Assembly: GCF_900105385.1 (NCBI RefSeq)
Contig: NZ_LT629772.1
Span: 3,844,001 to 3,908,000, forward strand
Direction: 5' to 3'
DNA length: 64,000 bases
DNA from: Microlunatus soli
GTDB taxonomy: Bacteria; Actinomycetota; Actinomycetes; Propionibacteriales; Propionibacteriaceae
The notes below the pieces were generated by a model that was given only the letters and a program-made list of their open reading frames with translations, did no database searches and was not told where the DNA came from. The translations under genes and the position numbers were made by a program. The first letter of the stretch is position 1. Every line of letters starts with the position of its first letter. Positions 22,610 to 50,756 of the stretch are shown one piece after another.

Positions 22610-22621
22610 GGGGGATCCAGC

Positions 22622-24043: not shown

Positions 24044-24077
24044 CCACGGCCCGGACGACCTGGCTGAGGGGGAGCGA

Positions 24078-36013: not shown

Positions 36014-37105
36014 ATGACCGCATCACAAGCTGGAGTTGTCCAGCCGCCCGACGCAGCCCAGGATGCCGAGCCCAAGGCGACCAGTGCCGGTCGTGCCCGG
36101 AAGAATCCGCTGCGCTTCCTGTCCCGCAGGTTCGGCTTCTATCTCTTCACCGCTTGGGCCGCGATCACGCTGAACTTTCTGATTCCCCGGTTCGTCCCCG
36201 GCGACCCTGCCCAGGATCTGCTGAACAATCTGCGGCAACAGACGGGCCAGACGCCGACCCCGGAACAGATCGCCGCGATCCGTACCTTCTACGGCGACCC
36301 GACCGAGAACATCATCGGGCAATACCTGCACTACTGGGCCGACATCGCGCGGTTCCGGTTCGGGACCTCGCTCAGCGAATTCCCCACGCCGGTCTCCGAA
36401 CTCGTCGGCCAGGCGCTGCCCTGGACCGTCCTGCTGGTCGGGGTGACCACGATCTTCGCCTGGATCATCGGCACCTTCCTCGGGGCCTGGATCGGCGCCC
36501 GGCCGGGCAGCCGGGTGGACACGATCTTCACGCCGGTGACGACGTTCCTGCACTCGGTGCCGCCGTTCTGGCTCGCACTGCTCGCCCTGTGGCTGTTCGG
36601 CTTCGTCCTGGACTGGTTCCCGCTGTCCGGCGGCTACGACCCGTCGGTCCCGTTCCAGATCAACAACCTCTGGTTCCTGCTGTCGGTGCTGAAGTACGGC
36701 GCGCTGCCGGCGATCACGTTGATCTTCGTCGGCTTCAACGGTTGGTTCTTCTCGATGCGCAACGTGATGGTCACCACCGTCGCCGAGGACTACGTCCTGC
36801 TGGCGCATGCCAAGGGACTGTCCAACCGGCGAGTGCTGCTCAAATACTCCGCCCGTAACGCCCTGCTGCCCAACGTGACCGGGTTGGCGCTGTCGATCGG
36901 CAGTGTGATCAGTGGCGTCCTGCTGACCGAGATCGTGTTCACCTACCCGGGGATGGGCTATCTGCTGCTGAAGGCGATCGGCGCCCATGACTTCCCGGTG
37001 ATGCAGACCGTGTTCCTGATGATCACGTTGACCACCTTGGCTGCCAACTTCATCGCCGATTCGCTGTATGTACTGCTCGACCCGCGGACCCGGGAGGCCG
37101 GCTGA
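36014..37105 (+). CDS. peptide-type ABC transporter permease, DppB family
   Basis: Inner-membrane subunit of a peptide/nickel-class (family 5) importer (363 residues). After a cytoplasmic tail, FYLFTAWAAITLNFLIPRFVPGDP is the conserved first helix with the PGDP motif. The coupling loop is AEDYVLLAHAKGLSNRRVLL. The frame is open upstream to 35879, but ATG 36014 fits family length. It overlaps the next permease by one base (TGATG). This class also imports plant oligosaccharides, which suits the GH140 gene downstream. Confidence 0.92.
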   Translation: MTASQAGVVQPPDAAQDAEPKATSAGRARKNPLRFLSRRFGFYLFTAWAAITLNFLIPRFVPGDPAQDLLNNLRQQTGQTPTPEQIAAIRTFYGDPTENIIGQYLHYWADIARFRFGTSLSEFPTPVSELVGQALPWTVLLVGVTTIFAWIIGTFLGAWIGARPGSRVDTIFTPVTTFLHSVPPFWLALLALWLFGFVLDWFPLSGGYDPSVPFQINNLWFLLSVLKYGALPAITLIFVGFNGWFFSMRNVMVTTVAEDYVLLAHAKGLSNRRVLLKYSARNALLPNVTGLALSIGSVISGVLLTEIVFTYPGMGYLLLKAIGAHDFPVMQTVFLMITLTTLAANFIADSLYVLLDPRTREAG

Positions 37106-38052
37106 TGACCACCCGGCGATTCCTTCGTTCCTGGCGTTCCCGGATCGGACTGGCGATCCTCGGCCTCTTCATCCTGGTGGCGATCGCCGGTCCGCCGTTC
37201 GTCGACCACGTGCTGCAGATGCCCGCCGATGCCATCGACTACAACGCGCTGCACCGGCCGCCCGGTGGTGATCATCCGCTCGGCACCACCAACAGCGGTC
37301 AGGACGTGCTGTCCCAGGTGATCGTCGGTGCCCGCAGCAGCGTTGCGGTCGGCGTCACCTCGGCAGTGCTGGCCACCGTGCTGGCGATCGGAGTCGGCGT
37401 GACCGGCGGCTTCCTCGGTGGTCGGACCGACCAATTGCTGACCGTCCTGACCAACCTCTTCATCACGCTGCCCAGCTTTGCGTTGATCTTGATCGTCGCC
37501 GGCTACGTCCAGGGTGTGACCTGGGTGGTGGTGGCGTTCCTGATCGGCATCTTCGAGTGGCCCGGCGGTGCCCGCTACCTGAGGTCCCAGACCTTGTCGC
37601 TGCGCAACCGTGACTTCGCGGTCGCCATGCGCGCGTTGGGGGAGACCCGGATCCGGCTGATCTTCTCCGAGATCCTGCCGCATCTCACCGGGATCATCTC
37701 CGCGATGTTCCTGCGGGCCATGGTGGCCGGCGTGATGGCCGAAGCGGGCCTGGCGTTCCTGGGCATCAGTGCCGAGACGATCAGTTGGGGAACGATGATC
37801 GAGGACTCCCGCGACCAATCCGCGATCCGGCTGGGCTACTGGTGGTGGTATCTGCCGCCTGGTCTGTGTCTGGCGCTGATCGGCACTGCCACCGCATTGA
37901 TCAACTTCGGCATCGACGAGATCAGCAACCCTCGGCTGCAGGGCAAGGAGCGCAAGCTGGTCCGGCAATTCGACAAGCTCCGCAGGAAGAGCTTCGCCGC
38001 TGACCGGACGACGGCCGAGGGGCGAGCGGCAGAGAAGGTGGCCCTTCGATGA
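37105..38052 (+). CDS. peptide-type ABC transporter permease, DppC family
   Basis: Second permease (315 residues): an N-terminal helix SRIGLAILGLFILVAIAGPP, an extracytoplasmic domain with HPLGTTNSGQDVLSQVIVGARS, then the BPD_transp_1 helices and coupling loop FAVAMRALGETRIRLIFSEI. The C-terminal extension NPRLQGKERKLVRQFDK is cytoplasmic. The stop overlaps the ATPase start by four bases. Confidence 0.93.
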   Translation: MTTRRFLRSWRSRIGLAILGLFILVAIAGPPFVDHVLQMPADAIDYNALHRPPGGDHPLGTTNSGQDVLSQVIVGARSSVAVGVTSAVLATVLAIGVGVTGGFLGGRTDQLLTVLTNLFITLPSFALILIVAGYVQGVTWVVVAFLIGIFEWPGGARYLRSQTLSLRNRDFAVAMRALGETRIRLIFSEILPHLTGIISAMFLRAMVAGVMAEAGLAFLGISAETISWGTMIEDSRDQSAIRLGYWWWYLPPGLCLALIGTATALINFGIDEISNPRLQGKERKLVRQFDKLRRKSFAADRTTAEGRAAEKVALR

Positions 38053-39134
38053 CTGACAGTCTTGTTCGGGAGCGTGCCGTCCCGACCACCCCACCGACGT
38101 CCGCCGCCCGCCGCCGCGGTCGTCCGATCCTGGACGTGTTTGGCCTCACCGTCGACTATCTGACCGAGCGCGGCCCGGTCCGATCGGTCAACGAGATCGA
38201 CCTGACCTTGCATGAGCGGGAGATCGTCGGCGTCGCAGGAGAGTCCGGATCCGGCAAGTCGACCTTGATCACGGCACTGACCCGGCTGCAACGCCCGCCG
38301 GCCGTCACCGTCGGCGGCAGCATCAGCTATCACCCGGCGGCCGGTGATCCGGTCGAGCTGACCACCCTGCCCGATGCGGCCCTGCGACGCCTGCGCTGGA
38401 ACGAGATCGCGATCGTGCTGCAGTCGGCCATGGACTGCCTGAACCCGGTGATGCGTCTCGGTGACCAGTTCGCCGACGCGTTGGCGGAGCACCATCGCGG
38501 CATCAGCCGCAAGGCCGTCAAGCAGCGGATCGGCGAGCTGCTGGAGATGGTCGGCGTCCCGGCCAACCGGGCCCGCAGCTATCCCCACGAGCTGTCCGGT
38601 GGGATGCGGCAGCGATCCTTGATCGCACTGGCGTTGGCCTGCGAACCGCGGATCGTGGTGATGGACGAGCCGACCACCGCGGTCGACGTCGTCATGCAAC
38701 GCCAGATCCTCGCCCAGCTGTTGAGCTTGCAAGATCAGCTCGGGTTCGCGGTCGTCTTCGTCACTCACGACCTGTCGCTGCTGGTGCAGCTCGCCGACCG
38801 GATCGCGATCATGTACGCCGGACGCATCGTGGAGGAAGCCAGCGCGGCGCAGATCTACACCGATCCGCTGCACCCCTACGCCCGTGGCCTCCGCGACGCC
38901 TTCCCTTCCCTGCATGCGCCGTTGACCGAGCTGTCCGGCATTGCCGGCAGCCCACCGGATCTGCGGAACCCGCCCTCCGGCTGTCCGTTCCACCCCCGCT
39001 GCCCGCAGCGGCTGGAACACTGCGCCTCGCAGCCGCCGGAGCTGTTGACGATCGGCGACCGACGGGTCTCCTGCCACCTCCACGACGGCACCGACCAGTC
39101 CGCAAGCCAGCCATCGAGGAGCACCGTCCGATGA
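38049..39134 (+). CDS. peptide-type ABC transporter ATPase, DppD family
   Basis: First ATPase of the importer (361 residues). Walker A GESGSGKSTLI, signature LSGGMRQRSLIALAL, Walker B RIVVMDEPTTAVD, and the oligo_HPY C-terminal tail GCPFHPRCPQRLEHC with the Cys set seen in this family. ATGA overlaps link it to the genes on both sides, so all four transport genes are translationally coupled. Confidence 0.95.
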   Translation: MTDSLVRERAVPTTPPTSAARRRGRPILDVFGLTVDYLTERGPVRSVNEIDLTLHEREIVGVAGESGSGKSTLITALTRLQRPPAVTVGGSISYHPAAGDPVELTTLPDAALRRLRWNEIAIVLQSAMDCLNPVMRLGDQFADALAEHHRGISRKAVKQRIGELLEMVGVPANRARSYPHELSGGMRQRSLIALALACEPRIVVMDEPTTAVDVVMQRQILAQLLSLQDQLGFAVVFVTHDLSLLVQLADRIAIMYAGRIVEEASAAQIYTDPLHPYARGLRDAFPSLHAPLTELSGIAGSPPDLRNPPSGCPFHPRCPQRLEHCASQPPELLTIGDRRVSCHLHDGTDQSASQPSRSTVR

Positions 39135-40189
39135 CAGTCTCGCCCACGGTCTCGCACGCACCCGCGGACCCGGAATCCCCAGTGGTCCTTGAAGCACAGG
39201 CAGTCAGCAAACACTTCGAGGTGCGCAACACCTTCGGCCGCGGCTCGACGATCCATGCCGTCGAAGACGCCACGCTGCAACTGCGCCGAGGGCAGATCGT
39301 CGCCCTGGTCGGCGAGTCGGGCAGCGGCAAGACCACCCTCGCCCGGCTGCTCGCCCACTTCTATCCGGTCACGTCGGGGCAGATCCTGCTGGACGGGGAA
39401 GCCGTCGACGACGGGCGCGGATTCGGAGATCGCGCGTTCCACAGCCGGGTCCAGTTGATCTTCCAGGATCCGTTCGGCGCGTTGAACCCGCAGAAACCCG
39501 TACGACACAACCTCGAACGAGCCCTCAAGCTGCATCACCAGTTCACCGACAAGGCAGAGCTCGAGCAGCGCGTCCTGGAGCTGATGGAACGCGTCAACCT
39601 CACCCCGGCCGCCGATCTGGTCGATGCCTATCCCCATCAGCTGTCCGGTGGCCAACGCCAGCGACTGGTGATCGCTCGCGCCCTCGCGGTCGATCCCGAG
39701 GTGCTGCTTGCCGACGAGCCGATCTCGATGCTCGACGTGTCGATCCGGTTGGACATCCTGAACCTGCTCCGCACCCTGCGCGACGAGCACGATCTGGCCA
39801 TGCTCTACATCACCCACGACATCGCCAGTGCGCGCTATCTGGCCAATGCGGTGCAGGTGATGTACGCCGGCCAGACCGTCGAGGGTGGGCCGACCGAGTC
39901 GGTGATCCAGAACCCGCAGCACCCCTACACCCAGCTGCTGCTCGAATCCTCCCCCGATCCGGAGAGCAGCCTGGATCCCGGCGATGCGCTCGAACTCGGT
40001 GAGCCGCCGAACCTCGCCGACCCACCGAGCGGCTGCCGCTTCCATCCACGCTGCCCGTCGGCGATGGACATCTGCCGGACCACATTCCCTGCTCGCAGCG
40101 AAACCAGCGACGGCCATTGGACGCATTGCTGGCTCCACCTCGAACGCCCCGATGCCGAACAGAAACAGGCCGAAACCCAACAGACGTAG
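39131..40189 (+). CDS. peptide-type ABC transporter ATPase, DppF family
   Basis: Second ATPase (352 residues): Walker A GESGSGKTTLARLLAHF, signature LSGGQRQRLVIARAL, a Walker B variant EVLLADEPISMLD, and a C-terminal oligo_HPY segment with GCRFHPRCPSAMDIC. A full DppBCDF set plus binding protein follows without interruption. Start ATG 39131 overlaps the previous stop. Confidence 0.95.
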   Translation: MTVSPTVSHAPADPESPVVLEAQAVSKHFEVRNTFGRGSTIHAVEDATLQLRRGQIVALVGESGSGKTTLARLLAHFYPVTSGQILLDGEAVDDGRGFGDRAFHSRVQLIFQDPFGALNPQKPVRHNLERALKLHHQFTDKAELEQRVLELMERVNLTPAADLVDAYPHQLSGGQRQRLVIARALAVDPEVLLADEPISMLDVSIRLDILNLLRTLRDEHDLAMLYITHDIASARYLANAVQVMYAGQTVEGGPTESVIQNPQHPYTQLLLESSPDPESSLDPGDALELGEPPNLADPPSGCRFHPRCPSAMDICRTTFPARSETSDGHWTHCWLHLERPDAEQKQAETQQT

Positions 40190-40203
40190 AAGGTGGGAGA
40201 TCA

Positions 40204-41880
40204 ATGAAGAGCCGCATCATCGCCGTCATCCTGGCCCTGGCATTAGCCGTGGCCGGTGTCTCCTGTTCGACCGAACGCACCAAAGCGCCGACCGGGAAGG
40301 TCGTCGACACCTTGAAGCTCGCGATGGGCGGTGCGACCTCGTACACCCAGAACTTCAATCCTTTCTCACCGGCAGCCAACAAGAGCCCGCTGATGAACTT
40401 GATCTTCGAGCCGCTGCTCCGGGTCAACCGCGCCGACGAGATGAAGGTGCAACCCTGGTTGGCCAAGTCCTACGACTTCTCCGATGACGGCAAGAAGCTC
40501 ACCTTCCATCTCCAGGAAGGCGTCACCTGGAGCGACGGCAAGCCGTTCACCTCCGCCGACGTCAAGTACACCCTCGAGCTGCCGAACACGACCGACGGCC
40601 TGGCGGTCGCGCCCATTCCTGATCTTGATTCGATCGAGACGCCCGACGAACACACGGTGATCATCAACTACAAGGCGCCGCAGCTGCACGACCTGAGCAA
40701 CTACAGCAAGATCCCGCGGGCGATCGTTCCCAAGCACGTGTGGGAGAAGCAGGACGCGGTGAAGTGGACCAACAAGGAGCCGGTCACCACCGGGGCCTTC
40801 ACGCTGGAGTCCTTCAGCCCGCAGTCGATCCGACTGAAGGTCCGCGACGGCTACTGGAACGGCAAGTTCAACGGCGTCAAGCACGTGGAGATCAAGCCAT
40901 TCGCGTCGGAGGAATCCGGCAAGCAGATGCTGCTCAAGAACGAGATCTCCTGGGCGGGCATGTCCTGGCAGAACTACCAGGACGACTTCGTCGGTGCCGA
41001 TCCCGATCACAACAAGTACTGGATCTACCCGGCGGGATTCTCCACCGGTCTGCTCTTCAACATGAAGAAGGGGCCGACCAACGATGTGCACGTCCGCCGC
41101 GCCCTCTACGCCGCGATCGACGCCGACAGCCTGTCCAAGCTGTTCAACTCCGGCACCAAGACCGCCAGCCCGACCGGCCTGGAGCCGGACAGCTGGGGCA
41201 GCTATCTGCCCGCCGACCTGGTCGACGTCCGCCACCAGCAGAACGTCGAGCTGGCCAAGTCCGAGCTGAAGGCGAGCAGCTACAGCGTCAAGGACGGCAA
41301 GCTCACCAAGGGCGGCAAGAGCTATCCGCTCACCATGACATCCAATTCCGACGACACGACCTGGAAGACCTTCGGTCCGGCGATCAAGAAGCAGTTCAAG
41401 GAGGTCCTCGGACTCGACGTCAAGGTCAAGTCGATCCCGGGGCAGCAGTGGGCTCGTGATCTTGGCAACGGCGACTTCCAGATGATCCAGCAGTACCTGC
41501 TGAGTGGCGACGACATCTGGGCCAGCCTCAATTCGCAGCTGAACAGCGAATACCTCAAGCCGATCGGCACCGCGGCGGTCGCCAACCAGGGCCGCTACCA
41601 CAATGCCGAGGTCGACAAGCTGCTGCAGCAGATGGGCCAGACGCTCGACGAGGCCGAGCTGAAGAAGCTGACGGCTGCGATCACCAAGATCACCACCGAC
41701 GAGGTGCCGTACGCGCCACTGCACTCGGCCGCCTACTACGTCAACGTGAACTCGACCGACTGGATCGGTTGGCCCGACCCGAACAGCGCCGACTACATCC
41801 CGCACATCACCCAGCCGGTGGACGCGACGATCACCATCCAGCACCTGTTGCCCAATCCGGACAAGGCCGCCGGGCAGTAG
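40204..41880 (+). CDS. family 5 extracellular solute-binding lipoprotein (DppA/OppA-like)
   Basis: Binding protein of the importer (558 residues). A short Lys/Arg N terminus and hydrophobic core end in GVSC (lipidated Cys at about residue 20). NFNPFSPAANKSPLMNLIFEPLL is the SBP_bac_5 entry motif, and KLTFHLQEGVTWSDGKPFTSADVKYTL, here split for length, follows as KLTFHLQEGVTW and GKPFTSADV. GGGAG precedes ATG 40204. Despite the peptide-transporter name, relatives in plant-polymer degraders bind oligosaccharides. Confidence 0.92.
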   Translation: MKSRIIAVILALALAVAGVSCSTERTKAPTGKVVDTLKLAMGGATSYTQNFNPFSPAANKSPLMNLIFEPLLRVNRADEMKVQPWLAKSYDFSDDGKKLTFHLQEGVTWSDGKPFTSADVKYTLELPNTTDGLAVAPIPDLDSIETPDEHTVIINYKAPQLHDLSNYSKIPRAIVPKHVWEKQDAVKWTNKEPVTTGAFTLESFSPQSIRLKVRDGYWNGKFNGVKHVEIKPFASEESGKQMLLKNEISWAGMSWQNYQDDFVGADPDHNKYWIYPAGFSTGLLFNMKKGPTNDVHVRRALYAAIDADSLSKLFNSGTKTASPTGLEPDSWGSYLPADLVDVRHQQNVELAKSELKASSYSVKDGKLTKGGKSYPLTMTSNSDDTTWKTFGPAIKKQFKEVLGLDVKVKSIPGQQWARDLGNGDFQMIQQYLLSGDDIWASLNSQLNSEYLKPIGTAAVANQGRYHNAEVDKLLQQMGQTLDEAELKKLTAAITKITTDEVPYAPLHSAAYYVNVNSTDWIGWPDPNSADYIPHITQPVDATITIQHLLPNPDKAAGQ

Positions 41881-41911
41881 CCCGACAGATCCCCCCACGA
41901 AGGAGACAACG

Positions 41912-43477
41912 ATGTCCGACGGAACCGCGGAGATCATCAAGCCGGTCGATCGGCTGAGCCTGACCCGTCGCACCGTGCTCGCGGCCGGCGTCGCGACCTG
42001 GGCCGGGTCGATGGCTCTCGACGGCGGTACGGCAACCGCCGACGAACCCACCGACTCGTCGACCGACAAGCCCGCCGACTCGTCAACCGCTGCGGCCGCC
42101 AAGCCGCCGTGGGAGGAGCACGGCCCGATCCGGATCTCCGACAACGGGCGCTTCTTCCAACATCAGGACGGCGAACCGTTCTTCTGGTTGGCTGACACGC
42201 CCTGGCTGCTGCACAAGCTGTCCCGCGAAGAACTGCCCACCTATTTCGAGGACCGGCGGGACAAGGGCTTCAACGTCGCCCTGCTGCAGGTGGTGCCGGC
42301 CAGCCTGGCGTTCAAGAACTACTACGGCGACACCCCGTTCATCGGTCAGAACATGGACAAGCCGAACGAGCCGTACTGGGAACACGTCGACGCGATGGTC
42401 GAGCTGGCCGCCGAATACGGCCTCTACATGGGGATGGACGCGGTCTGGGGTTCGGTGGTCAAGAGTGGTGCGCTCACCGTCGCCGGCGCGAAGCGTTACG
42501 GGACCTGGATCGCCGAACGCTATCGGCATGCGCCGAACATCGTCTGGCTGATCGGCGGCGACACCATCGCCCACGAGCGGCTGGAGATCTGGACCAAGCT
42601 CGGCGAGGCCGTCCGACAGGTCGATCCTGATCACCTGATCACCTTCCATCCCTTCGGGCGATATTCGTCCGCGACCTGGTTCCACAACGCCGACTGGCTG
42701 GACTTCCACCTGTTCCAGTCCGGGCATCGCACCTACGCCCAGGCGTTCGCCGAGATCAGCACCGAGGAGACCGGTGTCCAGCTGCCGACCTTGTGGAAGG
42801 GTGAGGACAACTGGAAGTTCGTGCTGGAGGATCACAAGCTGTATCCGCCGAAGCCGACTCTGGACGGCGAGCCGAGCTACGAACGCGTCCCGCAGGGGCT
42901 GCATGATCTTGATCAGCCGTTCTGGAAGGCCGAGGACATCCGGCGGTACGCCTACTGGGCGGTGTTCGCCGGAGCGTGCGGGCACTCCTACGGCAACGGT
43001 GCGGTGATGCCGATGCACGTCGAGTCCGACGGACCGGTCAACGGTTACGGCGTCCGGAAGTATTGGTACCAGGGGTTGGACGATCCGGGTGCCGGTCAGC
43101 TGCAGTATCTGAAGAAGTTGATCTTGTCTCGCCCGTACTTCAGCCGGATCTACGACCCGTCGATCGTGCACGGTGACGCCGGTTGGCGCTACGACCGGAT
43201 CCTGACCACACGAGGCAACGAGTATCTCTTCGCCTACAGCTACACCGGGCGTTCGTTCTCCTTGGAGATGGGACACATCTCGGGCAACCAGGTGAAGGTC
43301 TGGTGGTACAACACCCGCAACGGGGCCAGCCGTGCCGACGGCACCCGCACCAACAGCGGGATCCAGACCTTCAACCCGCCGGGCGGCACCGAGAACGGCA
43401 ACGACTGGGTGTTGGTGCTGGATGACGCCGACATGAGGTTCGACAAGCCAGGTACCACTCCGTCTCCGTGGAACTGA
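41912..43477 (+). CDS. Tat-exported GH140/DUF4038 apiosidase-like glycosidase
   Basis: A 521-residue secreted enzyme. LTRRTVLAAGVATWAGS gives a Tat signal, followed by a Ser/Thr/Asp/Lys-rich spacer (43-62) and a DUF4038 barrel: FFWLADTPWLLHKLSREELP, DKGFNVALLQVV, NIVWLIGGDT with candidate acid Asp217, and PTLDGEPSYE with candidate nucleophile Glu320. The end (LFAYSYTGRSFSLEMG) matches the putative collagen-binding-like domain usual in this family. The characterised member (GH140) releases D-apiose from rhamnogalacturonan II. It lies 31 bp after the importer and overlaps or abuts the RuBisCO-like gene. Confidence 0.88.
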   Translation: MSDGTAEIIKPVDRLSLTRRTVLAAGVATWAGSMALDGGTATADEPTDSSTDKPADSSTAAAAKPPWEEHGPIRISDNGRFFQHQDGEPFFWLADTPWLLHKLSREELPTYFEDRRDKGFNVALLQVVPASLAFKNYYGDTPFIGQNMDKPNEPYWEHVDAMVELAAEYGLYMGMDAVWGSVVKSGALTVAGAKRYGTWIAERYRHAPNIVWLIGGDTIAHERLEIWTKLGEAVRQVDPDHLITFHPFGRYSSATWFHNADWLDFHLFQSGHRTYAQAFAEISTEETGVQLPTLWKGEDNWKFVLEDHKLYPPKPTLDGEPSYERVPQGLHDLDQPFWKAEDIRRYAYWAVFAGACGHSYGNGAVMPMHVESDGPVNGYGVRKYWYQGLDDPGAGQLQYLKKLILSRPYFSRIYDPSIVHGDAGWRYDRILTTRGNEYLFAYSYTGRSFSLEMGHISGNQVKVWWYNTRNGASRADGTRTNSGIQTFNPPGGTENGNDWVLVLDDADMRFDKPGTTPSPWN

Positions 43478-43491
43478 GGGCAACTGATCTG

Positions 43492-44736
43492 ATGGATGTC
43501 GTACGTGCGGTCTACGAGATCGAGACCGCCCTCCCGCTGGAGAAGACGGTCGCCACCATCGCCGGGGAGCAGTCCACCGGCACCTTTGTCGCGGTGCGCG
43601 GTGAGACCGAGCGGCTGACCGCTCTGCATGCCGCAGCCGTCGAATCCATCGTCGACCTGCCACCCAGTGGCCGGCCGCCGCTGCCCGGTTCCTCGGGGGA
43701 CTGGGCCGACGCCCGACGGGCCCGGGTGACCATCGCCTTTCCGTTGCACAACTTCGGCGCCTCGCTGCCGAATCTGCTGGCCGCGGTCGCCGGCAACCTG
43801 TTCGATCTCCGGGAGGTCGGCGCGCTGCGGCTGGTCGACCTCGACCTCCCGCCGGCGTTCGCCGCTGCCTACCCGGGGCCGGCGTTCGGTGTGCTGGGGA
43901 CCCGCAAGCTGGTCGACCGCGGAACGGGGCCGCTGATCGGAACGATCATCAAACCCAGCATCGGACTCTCCGCAGCCCAGCTGGCGGCCCTGGTGGCCGA
44001 GATCGCCGAGGCCGGGATCGACTTCATCAAGGACGACGAGTTGCAGGGCAGCGCGCCCTACCTGCCCTTGGCCGAGCGGGTCCGGGCGGTGATGTCGGTG
44101 CTCAAGCCGTACGCCGACCGGACCGGCCGGATGCCGATGTACGCCTTCAACATCACCGACGACATCTCCCGGCTCGGTGCCAATCATGATCTTGTCGCCG
44201 AGGCCGGCGGCAGCTGCGTGATGGTCTGCGTCAACACTGTCGGGCTGGCCGGCGTGCAGTACCTGCGGGAGCGATCCGAGCTGCCGATCCACGGCCACCG
44301 CGCGATGTTCGGCGCGTTCTCCCGGTGGCCGCAACTCGGGATCGGCTTCGGCGCCTTCCAGAAACTCGCCCGGCTGGCCGGTGTTGATCATCTGCACACC
44401 AACGGGATCGCCAACAAGTTCTACGAATCCGACGACGAGGTGCTGGCCTCGATCGAAGCCGTCCGACGGCCCTTCCTCGGCGGTTACCACATCCTGCCGG
44501 TGCTGTCCTCGGGACAGTCCGCCGGACTGGCCCATGCGACCTATGCCGCCACCGGCACCGACGATCTGCTGGTGCTCGCCGGCGGCGGCGTCCACGGCCA
44601 CCCCGGCGGATCGGCAGCGGGTGTCCGGTCGATGCAGGAAGCCTGGGCGGCAGCGGTCGAGGGGGAGTCGCTGGAGTCCCGAGCGGCGAAGGTCCCCGAG
44701 CTCGCCGCAGCGATCGAGAAGTTCGGTCAGCGGTAG
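43492..44736 (+). CDS. RuBisCO-like protein (form IV), candidate oxo-sugar-acid phosphate decarboxylase
   Basis: A RuBisCO large-subunit homologue of 414 residues. It keeps the chemistry core: Lys154 in [11 protein letters not shown], the metal site FIKDDE with Lys180 (carbamylatable), Asp182 and Glu183, the [10 protein letters not shown] histidines, Lys in GIANKFYE (loop-6 position), SSGQSAG and the phosphate-site [10 protein letters not shown]. Full conservation argues for an enolase or decarboxylase type rather than a structural relic. RLPs called OiaX decarboxylate 3-oxo-isoapionate 4-phosphate in D-apiose catabolism; the adjoining GH140 gene makes that the leading hypothesis. GTG 43468 is an alternative start. 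Confidence 0.88.
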
Positions 44737-45218
44737 TTGGTGAACTGCACCGCGAAGTCGTAGTCCTGTTCCTTGATCAACGCCTGGACGGCCTGCAGGT
44801 CGTCCCGCTTCTTGCTGCTGACCCTCAGTTCCTCGCCCTGGATCTGCGCCTTGACGCCCTTCGGGCCCTCGTCGCGGATCAGCTTGGAGACCTTCTTGGC
44901 GTTCTCGGTGCTGATCCCCTCCTTGATCGAGGCGGTGATCTTGACCAGCTTGCCGGAGGTCCGCGGGTCGCCGGCGTCCAGCGCCTTGAGGCTGACGCCG
45001 CGGCGCAGCAGCTTGGTCTGGAAGACGTCCAGGACGGCATTCACCCGCTCCTCGGAGTTGGCCTCCATCTCGATCAACTCACCGGACCAGGCGATCGCCG
45101 CATCGGTGTTGCGGAAGTCGAATCGCTGCCGGACCTCCTTGGCGGCCTGGTTCAGCGCGTTGTCCACCTCCTGGCGGTCGACCTTGCTGACGATGTCGAA
45201 TGAACTCTCCGATGCCAT
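44727..45218 (-). CDS. yajQ: YajQ-family nucleotide-binding protein
   Basis: A 163-residue two-domain protein of the UPF0234/YajQ family, starting [20 protein letters not shown], with [34 protein letters not shown] and [14 protein letters not shown]. Homologues bind nucleotides; cyclic di-GMP binding is reported in Xanthomonas. Housekeeping in many bacteria. The stop overlaps the convergent RLP gene by ten bases. The frame is open upstream, but ATG 45218 matches family length. Confidence 0.95.
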
Positions 45219-45317
45219 GGCGACATTGTGCCCTGTCGACGGTGCCTTGTCGCCCGTCCCAGATCGCTGGATCCGGGCGGCGCCGGGTTCGGTTTCGCGG
45301 ACCGGCAGATCAGTTGG

Positions 45318-45323
45318 TATGGT
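45318..45323 (+). promoter_or_regulatory. -10 element of the tRNA-Tyr gene
   Basis: TATGGT lies 30 bp before the tRNA 5' end, a usual distance for a stable-RNA promoter with a short leader. The -35 is not clear. Confidence 0.4.
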
Positions 45324-45353
45324 TCTCTCCGCTGCCGACAACGTCGGTGGCAT

Positions 45354-45435
45354 GGCAGGTTGCCCGAGCGGCCAAAGGGAGCGGTCTGTAAAACCGTCGG
45401 CTTCGCCTACGTTGGTTCGAATCCATCACCTGCCA
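45354..45435 (+). tRNA. tRNA-Tyr (GTA)
   Basis: The 82-nt gene folds as a class II tRNA: acceptor GGCAGGT pairs with ACCTGCC plus discriminator A; the anticodon loop CTGTAAA holds GTA; the long variable arm CGGCTTCGCC is typical of tRNA-Tyr; the T loop is TTCGAAT. The T stem GTTGG/CCATC has one T-T mismatch. CCA is not fully encoded (ACC is followed by G). A strong hairpin follows. Confidence 0.95.
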
Positions 45436-45446
45436 CCGGATGGACG

Positions 45447-45480
45447 ACGGCCCCGCACCAGACCACGGTGCGGGGCCGTT
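45447..45480 (+). terminator. hairpin terminator of tRNA-Tyr
   Basis: A 13-bp perfect stem, ACGGCCCCGCACC with GGTGCGGGGCCGT, closes a 7-base loop. It starts 12 bp after the tRNA and is followed by TTCTGGT rather than a clean T-run. Confidence 0.8.
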
Positions 45481-45502
45481 CTGGTCCGGTCTCAGCCGGC
45501 CG

Positions 45503-45619
45503 TTGTTGATCGTGCATCGCCCCTTCAACAACGCCCGCGGCAAGCTCTACGAGATCGACTTCACCGGATCGACGCTGCGCCTCGGCCGACAGCGGACCGA
45601 CCTGGATGGCGATTCCTGA
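45503..45619 (+). pseudogene. short coding-like remnant after tRNA-Tyr
   Basis: An open frame of about 38 codons ending at TGA 45617 has strong G/C third positions and reads VHRPFNNARGKLYEIDFTGS and onwards. It has no promoter or ribosome site of its own, because the tRNA terminator precedes it. It looks like the 3' end of a lost gene. Family not recognised. Confidence 0.35.
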
Positions 45620-46144
45620 TCATCGCGATCCATGCTCAGGTCGCCGAGGCCAGTCCAGGCGGCCGGTCTTCTCGTATTCGGTGATCACCGCGACCTTTGC
45701 CGCTGACGGAGACTGCGGATCAAAGGTGTAGCCGAGCCAGTCGGTGACCAGCCGGGCGGCCAGCGGCAGGCCGACCACCCGCTCGCCGAGCGCCAGCACC
45801 TGGCAGTTGTTGGACAGCACGGAACGCTCCAGTGAGAACGGATCGGTCGCGACCGCTGCCCGGATGCCGCGGACCTTGTTGGCGCAGATCGCTTCTCCGA
45901 GACCGGTCCCACCGAGCACGATGGCCCGGTCGAGTCGTCCGTCCCGGACGGCTTCGGCCGCCCGGATGACCGGGACCGGGTAGGGGGTGTGGTCGTCGGC
46001 GTCGGGAACGCCGAAGTCGACGACCTCGGCAACCCGCTGATCGTTCCGGAGTATCTCGGCCAGGTGATTCCGCAGGGTGACCGCCGCGTCGTCAGTGGCC
46101 AGTCCGATCCGGTAGTTCTGCGGTTCTGCATTGTTGTTCACCAT
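45620..46144 (-). CDS. RpiB/LacAB-family sugar-phosphate isomerase
   Basis: A 174-residue isomerase. The family core is VLGGTGLGEAICANKVRGIRAAV and NNCQVLALGERVVG. The usual active-site Cys is replaced; Glu84 occupies the position used as base by the mycobacterial enzyme. The N-terminal DHAG motif is altered to DDAA. RpiB-type enzymes isomerise ribose 5-P and also tetrulose phosphates (DerI, D-erythrulose 4-P). Its nearness to the RuBisCO-like gene makes the latter attractive. ATG 46144 gives the normal length. Confidence 0.85.
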   Translation of the reverse strand: MVNNNAEPQNYRIGLATDDAAVTLRNHLAEILRNDQRVAEVVDFGVPDADDHTPYPVPVIRAAEAVRDGRLDRAIVLGGTGLGEAICANKVRGIRAAVATDPFSLERSVLSNNCQVLALGERVVGLPLAARLVTDWLGYTFDPQSPSAAKVAVITEYEKTGRLDWPRRPEHGSR

Positions 46145-46212: not shown

Positions 46213-46890
46213 TCAGCGGTCCGGCAGATCGAGCCGCTTCAGGCGTTCGTAGGCGCCGAGGATGTGCTTGTCGATCGCGTCCTCGGCGGCGCGCGGATCG
46301 GCCAGCGCGAGTGCGTCGCGCAGTTCCTTGTGCTCGCTGTGCCCGACCTGCCCGAAGTCGGGGAAGCTGGCGTTGCGGGCGCGCAGGAAGACCGTGACCT
46401 GACCACGGATGGACTCCCAGACGCGCTGCACTCGGCCGTGCTGGCTGTAGGTGTAGATGATGTCGTGGAAGCGGAGGTCGAGCCGGGCGGCGTCCTCGGG
46501 GGCGATCGGGGTGCTGACGCTCTTCATCTCGTCCAGGACCGCGTCCAGCTCGGCGAAGCCGGTCGCGTCCAGCCGGGTGCAGGCGCGGCTGGCGGCCAGT
46601 CGCTCGATGGCGCCGCGCAGCGTGTGCACCTCTTCCACATCCGTCCGGGTGAGGGTGCTGATGAAGGCGCCGCGGTGCCGGCGGATCTCCACGTGGCCCT
46701 CCTGCTCCAAACGTGCCAGCGCCTGCCGGATCGGGCCGCGGCTCACGTCCAGCGCGTCGGCGAGCTCGGACTCCTTGAGGTGCTGACCGGGCTCGAACCG
46801 GCCACCGGTGATCATGTCACGCATCACGTCGGTGACGAGATCACCCAGCGCGCGCTGCGACGGCAACTGGGGCACGCCCTCGGTCATCAA
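46213..46890 (-). CDS. GntR-family regulator, FadR subfamily
   Basis: A 225-residue repressor: winged helix-turn-helix (ESELADALDVSRGPIRQALA, then LEQEGHVEIRRHRGAF) and an all-helical FCD domain with metal-type ligands DLRFHDIIYTYSQHG and FGQVGHSEHKELRDAL. Divergent from the GH39-sugar importer operon, with a TTGTCA dyad between them, so it probably controls that operon. It could also act on the RpiB-like gene downstream on its own strand. Confidence 0.93.
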   Translation of the reverse strand: MMTEGVPQLPSQRALGDLVTDVMRDMITGGRFEPGQHLKESELADALDVSRGPIRQALARLEQEGHVEIRRHRGAFISTLTRTDVEEVHTLRGAIERLAASRACTRLDATGFAELDAVLDEMKSVSTPIAPEDAARLDLRFHDIIYTYSQHGRVQRVWESIRGQVTVFLRARNASFPDFGQVGHSEHKELRDALALADPRAAEDAIDKHILGAYERLKRLDLPDR

Positions 46891-47106: not shown

Positions 47107-48834
47107 ATGACCGCCGATATCGCCCCCACCCACGTCAGTCGCACCCGCTTGGGTTCGTTTCCGCGCGCGCTGCCCAGCGACCCCGACGCACCACACGTAC
47201 GGTCCGCACGGGTCGACGTGGATGCCGCCGACAGTCAGGGACCGTTGACGCCGGCGTGGGAGAGCATCGGCTACGACGAGATCAACTGGACCTACACGCC
47301 GACCGGCAAACGCCTGCTGCAGAAGTTCTCCTCCGAGCGCGGCGGCTACCACGTCCGACCGCACTACGTCTTCTGTTCCGGCAGCGGCTTCGGCATCCCG
47401 CACTGGGGCTCGGGCAACGTCTATCACGAGGATGCCGACGGCAACCCGATCTACGACTTCACGATCGTCGATCAGGCCTACGACGCGATCGTCGACGCCG
47501 GGCATCACGTGCTGGTCGAGCTCGGTTTCACCCCGCGCGACCTGCTCGGTGACGAAGCGGCCGCGTTGACGGTCGTGCCCAGCCCGACCGTCTACACCTC
47601 TTATGAGGCAGGGGCCTGGGGCTATCCGCCCCGCGACTACGACAAGTGGGGCGGCCTGGTGGCAGCGCTCGTCGAGCATTGCGTGCAGCGCTACGGCGAG
47701 CAGGAGGTCTCGAGCTGGTTGTGGGAGCTGTGGAACGAGCCGGACATCTCCTACTGGCGCGGTTCGCTGGACCAGTTCAACCGGCTCTACACCGTCACCG
47801 CCCGAGCCGTCCGCAGCGTGCTGCCGACCGGCAAGGTCGGCGGGCCGACCGTGACCGACGGCGGACTGGAATTCCTCAAGGGCTTCCTGGACTACACCTC
47901 CAGCCGCAATGAGCCGTTGGACTTCATCTCCTTCCACACCAAGGGGAGCTACTTCACCAATCGGGAGTACCGACCGATCGGCAGCCCGCCGTCGGAACAG
48001 CTCAGCCCGTCGTCGACGAAGATGATCAACGACATCCGTGAGTTCAACCGGGCTATCGCGCAGTACGAGCAGTATCGGCAGTTGCCGGTCTACGTCGACG
48101 AGTGCGACGCCTCCGTGCCGGCGCACTTCGGGACCTATGACAATCCCAACTACGAGTTCCAGAACACCGAGTACTACCCGGTGTTCCAGGCCAAGCTGAT
48201 GAAGAAGATCCTCGACCTCAATACCGAGGAAGTGGTGCAGGTCGAGCGCGCCACCTCCTGGAGCTTCTACTTCGAGGGTGAGCGCTACTTCGAAGGCACC
48301 CGGTCGTTCCAGACCGCCGGCGGCGTGGAGAAGCCACTGCTGAACGGCTATCGGATGCTGTCCCTGCTCGGCACCGAGCGGATCGCCGCGACATCGGACG
48401 CCGGTTGGACGCTCGACGACCTGGACCCGGAGGCCGGCCGCAGCATGGGCGAGGAGGTCGACGCCCTCGCCTCACGGGCGGAAGACGGAACGCTGGCGAT
48501 CCTGGTCTGGCGACACACCGATGATCAATATCGGACCAGCACCGACGAGGCCACGGTCCGACTGACGGTGCGGAATGCTCCGGTCGGCACCCTAGGGCTT
48601 ACCCACTACCGGATCGATGCCGAGCACAGCAACGCCCACACCCGATGGAAGGAACTGGGCTCACCGCAGGATCCGACCCCGGAGCAACTGACCAAGATCA
48701 CCGCGCGGCAGGGGCTGGAGGAGCTCGAGGAGACGACAACGGTCCAGGCCGATCCGGACGGAACGATCACCATCGACGTCTCGCTCCCGCTGCCGGCGGC
48801 GTCGCTGCTGCTGCTCCGACCGGAACGTCGCTGA
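47107..48834 (+). CDS. GH39 family glycosidase, beta-xylosidase-like
   Basis: A 575-residue cytoplasmic enzyme without a signal peptide. The barrel carries the acid/base in WLWELWNEPDISYW (Glu211) and the nucleophile in LPVYVDECDAS (Glu332), both standard GH39 positions; a beta-sandwich tail follows from about residue 430. GH39 includes beta-xylosidases and alpha-iduronidases. The importer next door and bacterial context favour xylosidase activity on imported oligosaccharides. First gene of the GntR-regulated operon. Confidence 0.9.
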   Translation: MTADIAPTHVSRTRLGSFPRALPSDPDAPHVRSARVDVDAADSQGPLTPAWESIGYDEINWTYTPTGKRLLQKFSSERGGYHVRPHYVFCSGSGFGIPHWGSGNVYHEDADGNPIYDFTIVDQAYDAIVDAGHHVLVELGFTPRDLLGDEAAALTVVPSPTVYTSYEAGAWGYPPRDYDKWGGLVAALVEHCVQRYGEQEVSSWLWELWNEPDISYWRGSLDQFNRLYTVTARAVRSVLPTGKVGGPTVTDGGLEFLKGFLDYTSSRNEPLDFISFHTKGSYFTNREYRPIGSPPSEQLSPSSTKMINDIREFNRAIAQYEQYRQLPVYVDECDASVPAHFGTYDNPNYEFQNTEYYPVFQAKLMKKILDLNTEEVVQVERATSWSFYFEGERYFEGTRSFQTAGGVEKPLLNGYRMLSLLGTERIAATSDAGWTLDDLDPEAGRSMGEEVDALASRAEDGTLAILVWRHTDDQYRTSTDEATVRLTVRNAPVGTLGLTHYRIDAEHSNAHTRWKELGSPQDPTPEQLTKITARQGLEELEETTTVQADPDGTITIDVSLPLPAASLLLLRPERR

Positions 48835-48851
48835 GTGACAAGGCGGGACCG

Positions 48852-49835
48852 ATGACCACCCGAGCCCTGTCGGCGAGCCGTGAACGTGCCGAGGTCGCGG
48901 AGTCGCCGACACCGGCGAATCGTCCGCCCCGCCGCGGCTGGCGGGACTGGAAGAAGACGACCTGGATCTGGCTGTTCCTGCTGCCGACCGTCGTGCTGTA
49001 CGGCGTCTACACGCTCTATCCGATCATCGCCAGCCTGGGCTACTCGTTGCTGGAGTGGAACGGCTTCGACGCCGACAAACGCTTCGTCGGCGTCCGGAAC
49101 TATCAAGCGGTCCTGACCGATCCGCTGTTCTGGAACTCGTTCAAGATCACCCTGCTCTTCATGATCATGGTGGTGCCGGCCCGGGTGCTGCTCAGTCTGC
49201 TGCTGGCGATGGTGCTGAACTCTCCGAGGATGCCGCTGGTCGGGATCCTCCGGTCGGCGTTCTTCATCCCGGTGGTGACGACGACCGCCATCATCGGGGT
49301 GGTCATGCAGTTCATCCTGGATCCCGCCAGCGGCCCGATCAACAAGGTGCTGATCGGACTCGGCAGCGGCGGGATCAGCTTCCTCGGCGAACCCGAGTGG
49401 GCGTTGCCCACCGCTGCCGCGCTGTACGTCTGGAAGTTCTTCGGCGTCACGATGATCTACTGGCTGGCCGCACTGCAGACGATCCCGCAGGACGTCTACG
49501 AGGCAGCCCGGATCGACGGCGCCGGCACCCGCAGCCTGTTCACCGACATCACCCTGCCGATGCTCAAGCCGTTCCTGGTGATCATCACCGTGCTGACCGT
49601 CGAGGAGACCTTCCACAACTTCGACCTGATGTACACACTGACCGCCGGCGGACCGTACTTCCACACCGAGATCATCGAGATCTACATCTACCGGTGGGCG
49701 TTCGGCGCATCGGTTCCGCAGCTCGGTCATGCCTCCGCGGCCGCGGTGCTCTTCGGCGTCCTGGTGGCCGTCGTCGGAGTCCTCCAGCTGTGGGGGCTGT
49801 ACGCCAGCCGTCGGATGAGGGGAGAGGCGCGATGA
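48852..49835 (+). CDS. carbohydrate ABC transporter permease, MalF type
   Basis: CUT1 permease of 327 residues: TWIWLFLLPTVVLYGVYTLY is the first helix, and YEAARIDGAGTRSLFTDITL the coupling loop. It starts at ATG 48852, 17 bp after the GH39 stop, with AAGGCGGG as a weak ribosome site; the longer upstream frame overlaps GH39 and is not used. Coupled to the next gene by ATGA. Confidence 0.94.
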   Translation: MTTRALSASRERAEVAESPTPANRPPRRGWRDWKKTTWIWLFLLPTVVLYGVYTLYPIIASLGYSLLEWNGFDADKRFVGVRNYQAVLTDPLFWNSFKITLLFMIMVVPARVLLSLLLAMVLNSPRMPLVGILRSAFFIPVVTTTAIIGVVMQFILDPASGPINKVLIGLGSGGISFLGEPEWALPTAAALYVWKFFGVTMIYWLAALQTIPQDVYEAARIDGAGTRSLFTDITLPMLKPFLVIITVLTVEETFHNFDLMYTLTAGGPYFHTEIIEIYIYRWAFGASVPQLGHASAAAVLFGVLVAVVGVLQLWGLYASRRMRGEAR

Positions 49836-50713
49836 CTGCCCAGCTCACGGCGGCGCCGCCGGCCGACACCGGTCGTCGACGTCGGTTCCTGCGGCGGCTG
49901 CCCTGGTGGATCGGCGCGGCGTTCCTGATCGGTGCGGCGGTGCTGTGGATCTTCCCGTTCATCTGGATGGTGGCGGCGTCGCTGAAGGACAACATGGAGA
50001 TGTTCGCCGGCGGCCTCAATCTGATCCCCAAGGACTTCCGCTGGGACAACTACGTCCGCGCCTGGACCGATGCGCACTTCGGTCGCTACCTGATCAACAC
50101 GATCGTCGTCACCGGGTTGACCGTGCTGATCGTGACGGTGCGCTGCGCGATGGCGGGATATGTGCTGGCCCGGTTCCGGTTCCGCGGCTCGAAGCTCTTC
50201 ATGGGGGTGCTGATGGCCACTCTGTTCGTGCCGACCGGCTACACGATCATCCCGATCGTCCAGGTATCGATGCGGCTCGGTCTGATCGACTCACTGGCCG
50301 GGATGATCCTGGCGCTCAGCGGGGCCGCCTACGTGTCGGCGATCCTGATCTACTACGGCTACTTCCGGCAGATGCCCAGGGAACTGGAGGAAGCCGCGAT
50401 CGTCGACGGAGCAGGCTTCTTCCGGACGTTCTTCTCGGTGATGCTGCCGTTGGCGATGCCGGTGACCTCGACGGTCGCGATCCTGACCTTCATCACGACC
50501 TGGAACTCGTTCTTCCTGCCGTTGGTGTTCACCTTCAGCCGCCCCAACCTCCGCACGGTCAGCGTCGGTATGCAGGCGTTCGTCGGTGAGAGCGCCACCG
50601 ATTGGAGCGGGATGGCAGCCGCCGGCGTGATCTCGATCGTGCCCGTGGTGTTGCTGTTCATCTTCTTGCAGCGCTACTTCGTCGAAGGCATCGCCGGTGC
50701 GGTGAAGTCCTGA
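49832..50713 (+). CDS. carbohydrate ABC transporter permease, MalG type
   Basis: Partner CUT1 permease of 293 residues with a basic N-terminal tail (GRRRRFLRRLPWW), six helices and the EAA loop EEAAIVDGAGFFRTFFSVML. The family-typical end LFIFLQRYFVEGIAGAVKS is present. Start ATG 49832 overlaps the previous stop by four bases. No ATPase gene accompanies it. Confidence 0.94.
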   Translation: MTAQLTAAPPADTGRRRRFLRRLPWWIGAAFLIGAAVLWIFPFIWMVAASLKDNMEMFAGGLNLIPKDFRWDNYVRAWTDAHFGRYLINTIVVTGLTVLIVTVRCAMAGYVLARFRFRGSKLFMGVLMATLFVPTGYTIIPIVQVSMRLGLIDSLAGMILALSGAAYVSAILIYYGYFRQMPRELEEAAIVDGAGFFRTFFSVMLPLAMPVTSTVAILTFITTWNSFFLPLVFTFSRPNLRTVSVGMQAFVGESATDWSGMAAAGVISIVPVVLLFIFLQRYFVEGIAGAVKS

Positions 50714-50756
50714 TCCGACGCGACGCCAGCTCCTGATCAACACCAGAAGGATGATC

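What the first reader, a model, noticed from the sequence alone, without database searches (positions are those of the whole stretch)
36014..46144. Possible apiose or branched-sugar utilisation locus: Dpp-type importer, GH140 apiosidase, RuBisCO-like protein and RpiB-type isomerase
Seen: an uninterrupted run of DppBCDF/A, a Tat-exported DUF4038/GH140 enzyme and a RuBisCO-like protein, then, after yajQ and tRNA-Tyr, an RpiB-family isomerase. Known: GH140 releases D-apiose from plant rhamnogalacturonan II; RLPs of the OiaX type decarboxylate 3-oxo-isoapionate 4-phosphate to a tetrulose phosphate; RpiB-like DerI isomerises D-erythrulose 4-phosphate. Inference: these genes may cover release, uptake, decarboxylation and isomerisation of apiose-derived carbon. 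Not in view are the apiose dehydrogenase, lactonase, oxidoisomerase and kinase. The pairing of a GH140 enzyme with an RLP behind a peptide-type importer is, as far as I know, not a described arrangement.
Basis: partly seen in the sequence, partly recalled or inferred. Interest (0 to 1): 0.78.

Follow-up and report, generated by a model that had tools for sequence, protein, structure and literature searches.

The report
RuBisCO-like enzyme for rare pectin sugar
A soil bacterium carries a relative of the carbon-fixing enzyme RuBisCO that may help it eat aceric acid, a rare branched sugar acid of plant pectin, rather than apiose as first guessed; no experiment has tested this yet.

Summary
The genes are as described: DppBCDF-SBP, a Tat-type GH140 enzyme and a RuBisCO-like protein (RLP) in one + strand run, then yajQ, tRNA-Tyr and an RpiB. 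The apiose/OiaX reading is only partly supported. The RLP scores 415 bits on the OiaX model (cut-off 700). A GH140 like the window's lies near 1 of 80 related RLP genes. The same genome has a separate locus with ApnL-like, ApnO-like and OiaC-like genes. In many relatives the RLP sits with a DUF1537 kinase, a single-cysteine Asp/Glu-racemase-like protein and a GH127 whose best solved match is 5mqo (recalled as BT1003, aceric acid hydrolase). In two genome sets 15 distinct genomes have this GH127 and all 15 have the RLP (7 of 7 among 96; 9 of 9 among 394; G000 in both). In the window's genome the module is split: RLP here, the other three genes 2.0 Mb away. Best explanation: a RuBisCO-like step in catabolism of L-aceric acid of rhamnogalacturonan-II (confidence 0.55; no biochemistry). 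Six searches of an open-licence library listed no paper on such a route (two lists capped).

The parts
36014..37105 (+). DppB-type permease (PF00528)
   Evidence: 86-90% identical to the gene in L106
37105..38052 (+). DppC-type permease
   Evidence: 89% to L106
38049..39134 (+). DppD-type ATPase (ABC_tran, oligo_HPY)
   Evidence: 84% to L106
39131..40189 (+). DppF-type ATPase
   Evidence: 83% to L106
40204..41880 (+). family-5 solute-binding lipoprotein (SBP_bac_5); ligand not known
   Evidence: 83% to L106; 0 of 80 RLP loci at 150 bits
41912..43477 (+). GH140 apiosidase-type enzyme, PF13204+PF12904, twin-arginine motif at its start (read by eye)
   Evidence: 350 bits; best solved match 3kzs/5msy, 417 bits over residues 66-510
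43468..44736 (+). RuBisCO-like protein; only RLP of the genome at E<=0.001
   Evidence: catalytic residue set kept; tree
44727..45353 (-). yajQ (DUF520), neighbour, not part of the pathway
45354..45437 (+). tRNA-Tyr (GTA), neighbour
45620..46144 (-). RpiB-type isomerase, probably ordinary ribose-5-phosphate isomerase; link to the RLP not supported but not excluded
   Evidence: TIGR02133 164.1 bits (cut-off 168.2), DerI model 113.9 (cut-off 240); 49% over 94 residues to the RpiB of the L149 OiaX locus
46213..46890 (-). GntR/FCD regulator, link unknown

Best explanation
The RLP is the carbon-carbon bond enzyme of a catabolic route for L-aceric acid (3-C-carboxy-5-deoxy-L-xylose), which I recall as a sugar of side chain B of rhamnogalacturonan-II. 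Proposed order: a GH127 releases aceric acid; the racemase-like protein (c2) turns the aldose into the ketose; the DUF1537 kinase phosphorylates the C1 hydroxyl; the RLP acts on the resulting 1-phospho-2-keto-3-hydroxy-3-carboxylate. That compound differs from the OiaX/OiaT substrate, 3-oxo-isoapionate 4-phosphate, only by a CH(OH)CH3 group in place of CH2OH (structures recalled). The RLP would either decarboxylate it to a 5-deoxypentulose 1-phosphate, or move the carboxyl group and hydrolyse, giving 3-phosphoglycerate and lactate. In the window's genome the route is split: importer, GH140 and RLP here; kinase, GH127, c2 and regulator at 5.89-5.90 Mb. Shown: the genes, their linkage in relatives, the GH127 subfamily, and a separate apionate-type locus. 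Inferred: all substrates, the role of c2, the phosphorylated position, and which RLP chemistry.
For: (1) Linkage: the nearest relative (G006, RLP about 90%) has DppBCDF-SBP-RLP-kinase-GH127-c2-regulator in one run. Among 80 RLP loci, at score limits that I chose, kinase in 77, c2 in 45, GH127 in 34. (2) Co-occurrence: GH127 over 600 bits in 7 of 96 relatives, all 7 with the RLP over 500 bits (10 of 96 have it; Fisher 1e-8); in 9 of 394 class genomes (E<=1e-110), all 9 with the RLP (E<=1e-100; 12 have it; Fisher 4e-16). The two lists of GH127 genomes share only G000. In 7 of the 9, RLP, kinase and GH127 are contiguous (c2 next to them in 4, about 3.5 kb off in 3); in one the break is a contig end inside the kinase; the window's genome is the only one with two loci. 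(3) The GH127 (L106 copy) has best solved match 5mqo, 509 bits, next 326. It shares with 5mqo an insertion that 4qjy and two of the genome's three other GH127-related genes lack; the third is too distant to compare. 5mqo as BT1003 is recalled; BT1003 as aceric acid hydrolase is in PMC5698469 and PMC10850190 (passages). (4) ApnO-type genes are near 2 of 45 c2 loci and 16 of 35 others. (5) The genome has an apionate-type locus with an OiaC-like protein; 5 of the 120 homologues listed, at 60-67%, are named 3-oxoisoapionate decarboxylase by a source. (6) The two isomerase genes beside an annotated OiaX, which I read as LerI and DerI, have matches near 0 and 1 of 80 loci. (7) Seven catalytic residues are kept in all 74 rows compared.
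Against: No biochemistry or growth data. The genome-wide tests do not correct for relatedness: 4 of the 7 are one genus, 6 of the 9 one other genus. Three of 10 and three of 12 RLP genomes lack this GH127. In the window's own genome the genes are 2.0 Mb apart, and a GH140, an apiose enzyme, sits beside the RLP; GH140 and RLP also share genomes (3 of 57 have both). ApnO-type genes and c2 occur together in L077 and L007. Column comparison found no residue that marks all c2/GH127 lineages against ApnO lineages. Bacteroidota RLPs with c2/GH127 group nearer some ApnO rows than the actinobacterial ones. Many RLP loci have c2 but no GH127 of this type (13 of 45). An isomerase role for c2 has no precedent known to me in the Asp/Glu racemase fold. 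BT1003 is only a subfamily relative, and GH127 specificities vary. The ApnO, LerI and DerI labels rest on domain, position and recall; NCBIfam gave no match for the ApnO-type protein at the limits used.
Confidence: 0.55

Rival explanations
1. Apiose route: the RLP is an OiaX- or OiaT-type enzyme acting on 3-oxo-isoapionate 4-phosphate, fed by GH140-released apiose.
For: GH140 is directly upstream and best matches 3kzs/5msy; the OiaX model is the best of all RLP models; the kinase best matches OiaK; a homologue 67% identical (P0190) is named 3-oxoisoapionate-4-phosphate transcarboxylase/hydrolase by a source; GH140 and RLP share 3 of 57 genomes; the nearby RpiB is 49% over 94 residues to that of the L149 OiaX locus.
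Against: OiaX 415 bits vs cut-off 700; own kinase 223 vs 700; ApnO, ApnL, OiaC and LerI queries find nothing in the window; a separate apionate-type locus; GH140 not conserved beside the RLP. The OiaX score alone does not discriminate: RLPs of two apionate-type loci score 415.6 (L065) and 480 (L059).
Confidence: 0.17
2. The RLP and kinase handle another branched or acid sugar of pectin, and GH127 releases something other than aceric acid.
For: GH127 also holds arabinofuranosidases; some RLP loci have GH28, GH78 or GH2 but no GH127 of this type, e.g. Kribbella and Streptomyces.
Against: The GH127 is far closer to 5mqo than to any solved arabinofuranosidase and shares its insertion; a tertiary hydroxy-carboxylate beside a ketone is what OiaX/OiaT chemistry needs, and the ketose of aceric acid has that pattern (recalled).
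Confidence: 0.18
3. In this organism the block is a relic or a re-used importer: the RLP was cut from its partners and no longer works in the pathway.
For: The RLP's partners are missing downstream of it, where yajQ follows instead; kinase, GH127 and c2 are 59-67% to G006 while RLP is about 90%, so the two loci have different histories.
Against: The RLP is open and keeps its catalytic residues; it is the only RLP of a genome whose kinase, GH127, c2 and regulator frames are each open to their own stop.
Confidence: 0.1

Closest known systems
OiaX/OiaK route for D-apiose (RLP decarboxylase plus DUF1537 kinase)
   Same: RLP and DUF1537 kinase adjacent in relatives; same enzyme families; same class of beta-keto, tertiary-alcohol carboxylate substrate proposed
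   Different: An annotated OiaX locus (L149) has a triose-phosphate-isomerase-like and an RpiB gene, an ApnO-type gene, Gfo/Idh and a sugar ABC importer; the present module has GH127 and a racemase-like protein instead; under the OiaX and OiaK cut-offs
OiaT, 3-oxo-isoapionate-4-phosphate transcarboxylase/hydrolase
   Same: RLP; mentioned in PMC6302742 (passage)
   Different: No reference sequence was available to test; apionate genes absent from the module
BT1003, GH127 aceric acid hydrolase of B. thetaiotaomicron
   Same: Linked GH127 is of its subfamily by best solved match and shared insertion (5mqo = BT1003 recalled)
   Different: BT1003's genome context, and any RLP there, were not examined
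BT1012-type GH140 apiosidase
   Same: Window GH140 best matches 3kzs/5msy (BT1012 is recalled)
   Different: Beside an RLP and a Dpp importer here
MtnW, methionine-salvage RLP
   Same: Same superfamily
   Different: 194.7 and 160.5 bits against cut-offs 409 and 513.6

Membership tests
OiaX (NF042437) | equivalog score over 700 bits | tested here: not met
   415 bits
OiaX pathway | ApnO-, LerI- and DerI-type genes beside the RLP | tested here: not met
   ApnO and LerI queries find nothing in the window; the DerI query finds only the RpiB at 45620-46144, 91.7 bits, which is under the DerI cut-off; ApnO-like at 0.27 Mb
OiaT | clade of the Xanthobacter enzyme; product 3-phosphoglycerate plus glycolate (products recalled) | not testable with these tools
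   no reference sequence obtained; one homologue at 67% so named by a source
MtnW | TIGR03332 / NF007095 over cut-off | tested here: not met
   160.5 (513.6) and 194.7 (409) bits
RuBisCO form III | TIGR03326 over 497.45 bits | tested here: not met
   271 bits
RuBisCO-superfamily catalysis | carbamate lysine, metal-binding acids and the two further lysines kept | tested here: met
   K162, K188, D190, E191, H277, K317, S348 identical in the 74 rows of nine groups compared, of 100 rows (equivalence to RuBisCO numbering recalled)
GH140 apiosidase | PF13204 over gathering score; nearest characterised enzyme an apiosidase | tested here: met
   349.6 bits vs 26.5; 3kzs/5msy 417 bits (identity as BT1012 recalled); activity not tested
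DerI (NF051858) | over 240 bits | tested here: not met
   113.9 bits
Actinobacterial RpiB (TIGR02133) | over 168.2 bits | tested here: inconclusive
   164.1 bits, just under
BT1003-type GH127 (partner gene at 5.90 Mb) | PF07944 plus the insertion seen in 5mqo | tested here: met
   PF07944 262 bits for the own copy; insertion in it and absent from paralogues L119, L120
Two-cysteine Asp/Glu racemase (c2) | two catalytic cysteines | tested here: not met
OiaC (gene at 0.27 Mb) | 3-oxo-isoapionate decarboxylase activity or model | tested here: inconclusive
   no NCBIfam match at E<=1e-15; PF01261; 5 of 120 listed homologues, 60-67%, named 3-oxoisoapionate decarboxylase by a source, most other named ones only sugar phosphate isomerase/epimerase

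The most novel reading that the evidence does not exclude
A RuBisCO-like protein carries out a RuBisCO-type carboxyl transfer and hydrolytic cleavage on the 1-phosphate of the ketose form of aceric acid, giving 3-phosphoglycerate and lactate directly, so that isomerase (a one-cysteine racemase-fold enzyme), kinase and RLP form a complete three-step catabolic route for aceric acid, for which I found no described route. That most c2/GH127 loci show no aldolase and no LerI-type gene fits this better than plain decarboxylation.
Probability: 0.25. Interest if true: 0.87.

Novelty: new variant of a known kind. Interest (0 to 1): 0.68.

Why it matters
Rhamnogalacturonan-II is found across plants (abstract of PMC12168206), and the fate of its acid sugar aceric acid in bacteria is, as far as the searches here show, not described. 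The module gives three gene families and an exact substrate to test. If true it would add a function to the RuBisCO superfamily and a sugar-related role for the Asp/Glu racemase fold, and it warns that RLP genes beside DUF1537 kinases need not be apiose genes.

Tried and rejected
Considered and set aside: RpiB as DerI (scores; but see the 49% match); GH140 next to RLP as a conserved pair; window RLP as MtnW. A residue signature for the c2/GH127 RLPs against the ApnO RLPs was looked for and none holds across lineages. A DNA pattern search was ill-chosen and found nothing. A strict motif for the GH127 insertion matched 25 of 34 GH127 loci. Of the 9 missed, aligning the segment showed the full insertion in 8, with Q or S where the motif wanted N or H, or E for Q; L013 is seen only over the second part of the segment. 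The cluster label GH127 used in the tree for L043 and L074 is loose: they lack the insertion. L151's annotated arabinofuranosidase gave no match to the segment. So among the rows looked at only the actinobacterial-clade and Pedobacter rows have the verified type. L007's distant ApnO was ignored in the tree labels but counted. The tree is a quick one with 30 weak forks of 96 and several long branches, L149 (OiaX) the longest in the ingroup. The first cluster counts were lower than the tblastn counts, which I use. A protein search with the L061 RLP gave no name that helped. only listed locus lengths; one search translated a wrong frame. Not done: dockings, an RLP model, a test of whether this RpiB is the genome's only one.


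Full report
What is there. The window is G000:C1:3844001-3908000 of a 6.73 Mb single-contig genome. The RLP is the only one in the genome at E<=0.001.

Which RLP. Of NCBIfam models OiaX is best (415 bits, cut-off 700), then form III RuBisCO (271 of 497), RuBisCO large subunit (248 of 438) and the MtnW models (195 of 409; 160 of 514). RLPs of two apionate-type loci also score under the OiaX cut-off (L065 415.6; L059 480), so the score alone decides nothing. Seven residues expected for RuBisCO-type chemistry are kept in all 74 rows compared. In a quick 100-row tree the window RLP pairs with the G006 orthologue and sits in a 49-row branch (SH-aLRT 95): 32 rows labelled GH127, 9 other RG-II-type, 3 c2, 4 other, and the window. 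None of the 18 ApnO-labelled rows is in it. Rows with titles in that branch are Actinomycetota except one titled Planococcus (L026). The annotated OiaX (L149, Rhizobium bangladeshense) lies in the other large branch, on a long end branch.

What travels with it. In the nearest relative (L106) the same importer (DppC at 89%) and RLP are followed by a DUF1537 kinase, a GH127, an Asp/Glu-racemase-like protein (c2) and a sugar-binding regulator; no GH140 is in the run. Over 80 RLP loci with up to 10 kb on each side (L002-L081, many cut by contig ends), presence by tblastn at score limits that I chose was: kinase 77, c2 45, GH127 34, ApnO-type 18, ApnL 11, OiaC 1, a GH140 like the window's 1 (L072), LerI 0, DerI 1. 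A divergent DUF5060/PF13204 cluster was in 8. ApnO-type genes were near 2 of 45 c2 loci (L007, L077) and 16 of 35 others. c2 and GH127 were together in 32 loci, c2 alone in 13, GH127 alone in 2. The ApnO label rests on the phosphogluconate-dehydrogenase C-terminal domain, company with ApnL-like genes and the annotated OiaX, and recall; no NCBIfam model matched. So at least two kinds of RLP-kinase locus exist: apionate-type loci, and GH127/c2 loci.

Why aceric acid. The GH127 linked to the RLP has as best solved match 5mqo (509 bits; next 4qjy, 326) and shares with it an insertion before a conserved Glu/Cys stretch. The window genome's own copy at 5.90 Mb has it; two of its three other GH127-related genes do not, and the third is too distant to compare. 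I recall 5mqo as BT1003; a literature search for the code found no paper. [quoted passage not shown] Other linked genes, GH78, GH2 and in places fucosidase, beta-galactosidase and esterases, fit RG-II side chains. Aceric acid already has a carboxylate on a carbon bearing a tertiary hydroxyl. One aldose-ketose isomerisation and one phosphorylation would give the close homologue of 3-oxo-isoapionate 4-phosphate (structures recalled), so the oxidising enzymes of the apiose route would not be needed, which matches their rarity in c2 loci. PMC6302742 states that two RLPs act on 3-oxo-isoapionate-4-phosphate by decarboxylation and by transcarboxylation with hydrolysis (passage).

Test that does not start from the RLP. 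Searching 96 related genomes with the GH127: 7 have a match over 600 bits, with a gap down to 333; all 7 have the RLP over 500 bits, which 10 of 96 have. Searching 394 class genomes: 9 have the GH127 (E<=1e-110), all 9 have the RLP (E<=1e-100), which 12 have. The two lists of GH127 genomes share only G000, so 15 of 15 distinct GH127 genomes have the RLP. Of the 9, seven have RLP, kinase and GH127 contiguous (c2 next to them in four, about 3.5 kb off in three), one (G438) is broken by contig ends inside the kinase, and only the window's genome has the two parts at different places. For GH140 the same kind of count is weaker: of 57 relatives 5 have a GH140 match (E<=1e-20), 5 have this RLP, 3 have both (Fisher 0.003).

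The window's genome. Kinase (59% to G006), GH127 (67%) and c2 (65%) lie together at 5,895,106-5,899,115 with a regulator, a GH2 and two GH78 genes; all frames checked are open to their own stop. No second RLP is in the genome, and no trace of these partner genes is in the window. The importer and RLP are 82-90% identical to G006, so the two parts have different histories. Three GH140-related genes exist in the genome; G006 has one beside BNR, GH28 and DUF5060/PF13204 genes at another place.

A separate apionate-type locus. At 266-273 kb are an ApnL-like gene (178 bits of the ApnL model, cut-off 750), a GntR regulator, an MFS transporter, a xylose-isomerase-like protein, an ApnO-like gene (43% to the L059 protein) and an SDR. 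Five of the 120 listed homologues of the xylose-isomerase-like protein, at 60-67% identity, are named 3-oxoisoapionate decarboxylase by one source; more are named only sugar phosphate isomerase/epimerase. If the five are right, apiose carbon has its own RLP-free route here. The regulator and transporter names come from cluster membership and sequence reading.

Which chemistry. LerI-type genes are near 0 of 80 loci and a DerI-type gene near 1. A class II aldolase cluster (26) is in 6 loci, none of them with c2 or GH127. A fused class II aldolase/dehydrogenase (cluster 36) is in 4 GH127/c2 loci (L023, L024, L026, L068), beside what I read as rhamnose isomerase (no Pfam match), so it may belong to rhamnose. 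No systematic aldolase search was made. Decarboxylation would need an aldolase; the transcarboxylase/hydrolase variant would end in 3-phosphoglycerate and lactate. I lean slightly to the latter but cannot decide.

Literature. Searches for aceric acid with catabolism (6 of 6 listed), GH127 (4 of 4), decarboxylase/RuBisCO-like (20 of 33), B. thetaiotaomicron (16 of 16), kinase/isomerase/pathway (15 of 31,337, mostly off the topic), and RuBisCO-like with rhamnogalacturonan (1 of 1) showed no title or abstract start that describes aceric acid catabolism. Only an open-licence library was searched; the apiose paper (Carter et al. 2018) and the RG-II paper (Ndeh et al. 2017) were not held, and their content is recalled.

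Noticed in passing
L147:13083-19672 (G000:C1:266082-272671): ApnL-like, GntR, MFS, OiaC-like, ApnO-like, SDR cluster: a likely RLP-free apionate route in the window's own genome.
   Followed up: partly
L041, L042, L044, L045, L056: Bacillota RLP-kinase loci with alcohol-dehydrogenase-type and class II aldolase clusters, three with TRAP transporters, but no ApnO-type gene or c2: perhaps a third RLP pathway.
   Followed up: no
L028:13609-15669 and six other loci (cluster 21): A protein of about 690 aa with no Pfam match at E<=0.001, in RLP loci of Kribbella, Streptomyces and Occultella records.
   Followed up: no
plasmid hits H9, H12, H20, H25, H30, H33, H60: RLPs 47-50% identical to the window's on plasmids of organisms with haloarchaeal names, one beside a four-carbon acid sugar kinase.
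   Followed up: no
L151 (Croceibacterium plasmid): Beta-galactosidases, alpha-L-fucosidase, GDSL esterases, arabinofuranosidase-domain protein, RLP, kinase, sialidase family and TonB receptor in one stretch: looks like an RG-II side chain locus in an alphaproteobacterium.
   Followed up: partly
window 7347-9764 (-): LacI-type regulator fused to an ADP-ribosylglycohydrolase domain.
   Followed up: no
window 21761-25094 (+): Carbon-nitrogen hydrolase, amidohydrolase and luciferase-like monooxygenase in a row.
   Followed up: no
window 47107-52193 (+): GH39-type enzyme (best solved matches beta-xylosidases) with ABC permease genes and a sugar-type binding protein, close to the GntR regulator.
   Followed up: partly
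L091, L103, L105 (G042): One genome of the same family has three divergent RLPs (31-35% to the window's) outside the clade studied.
   Followed up: no
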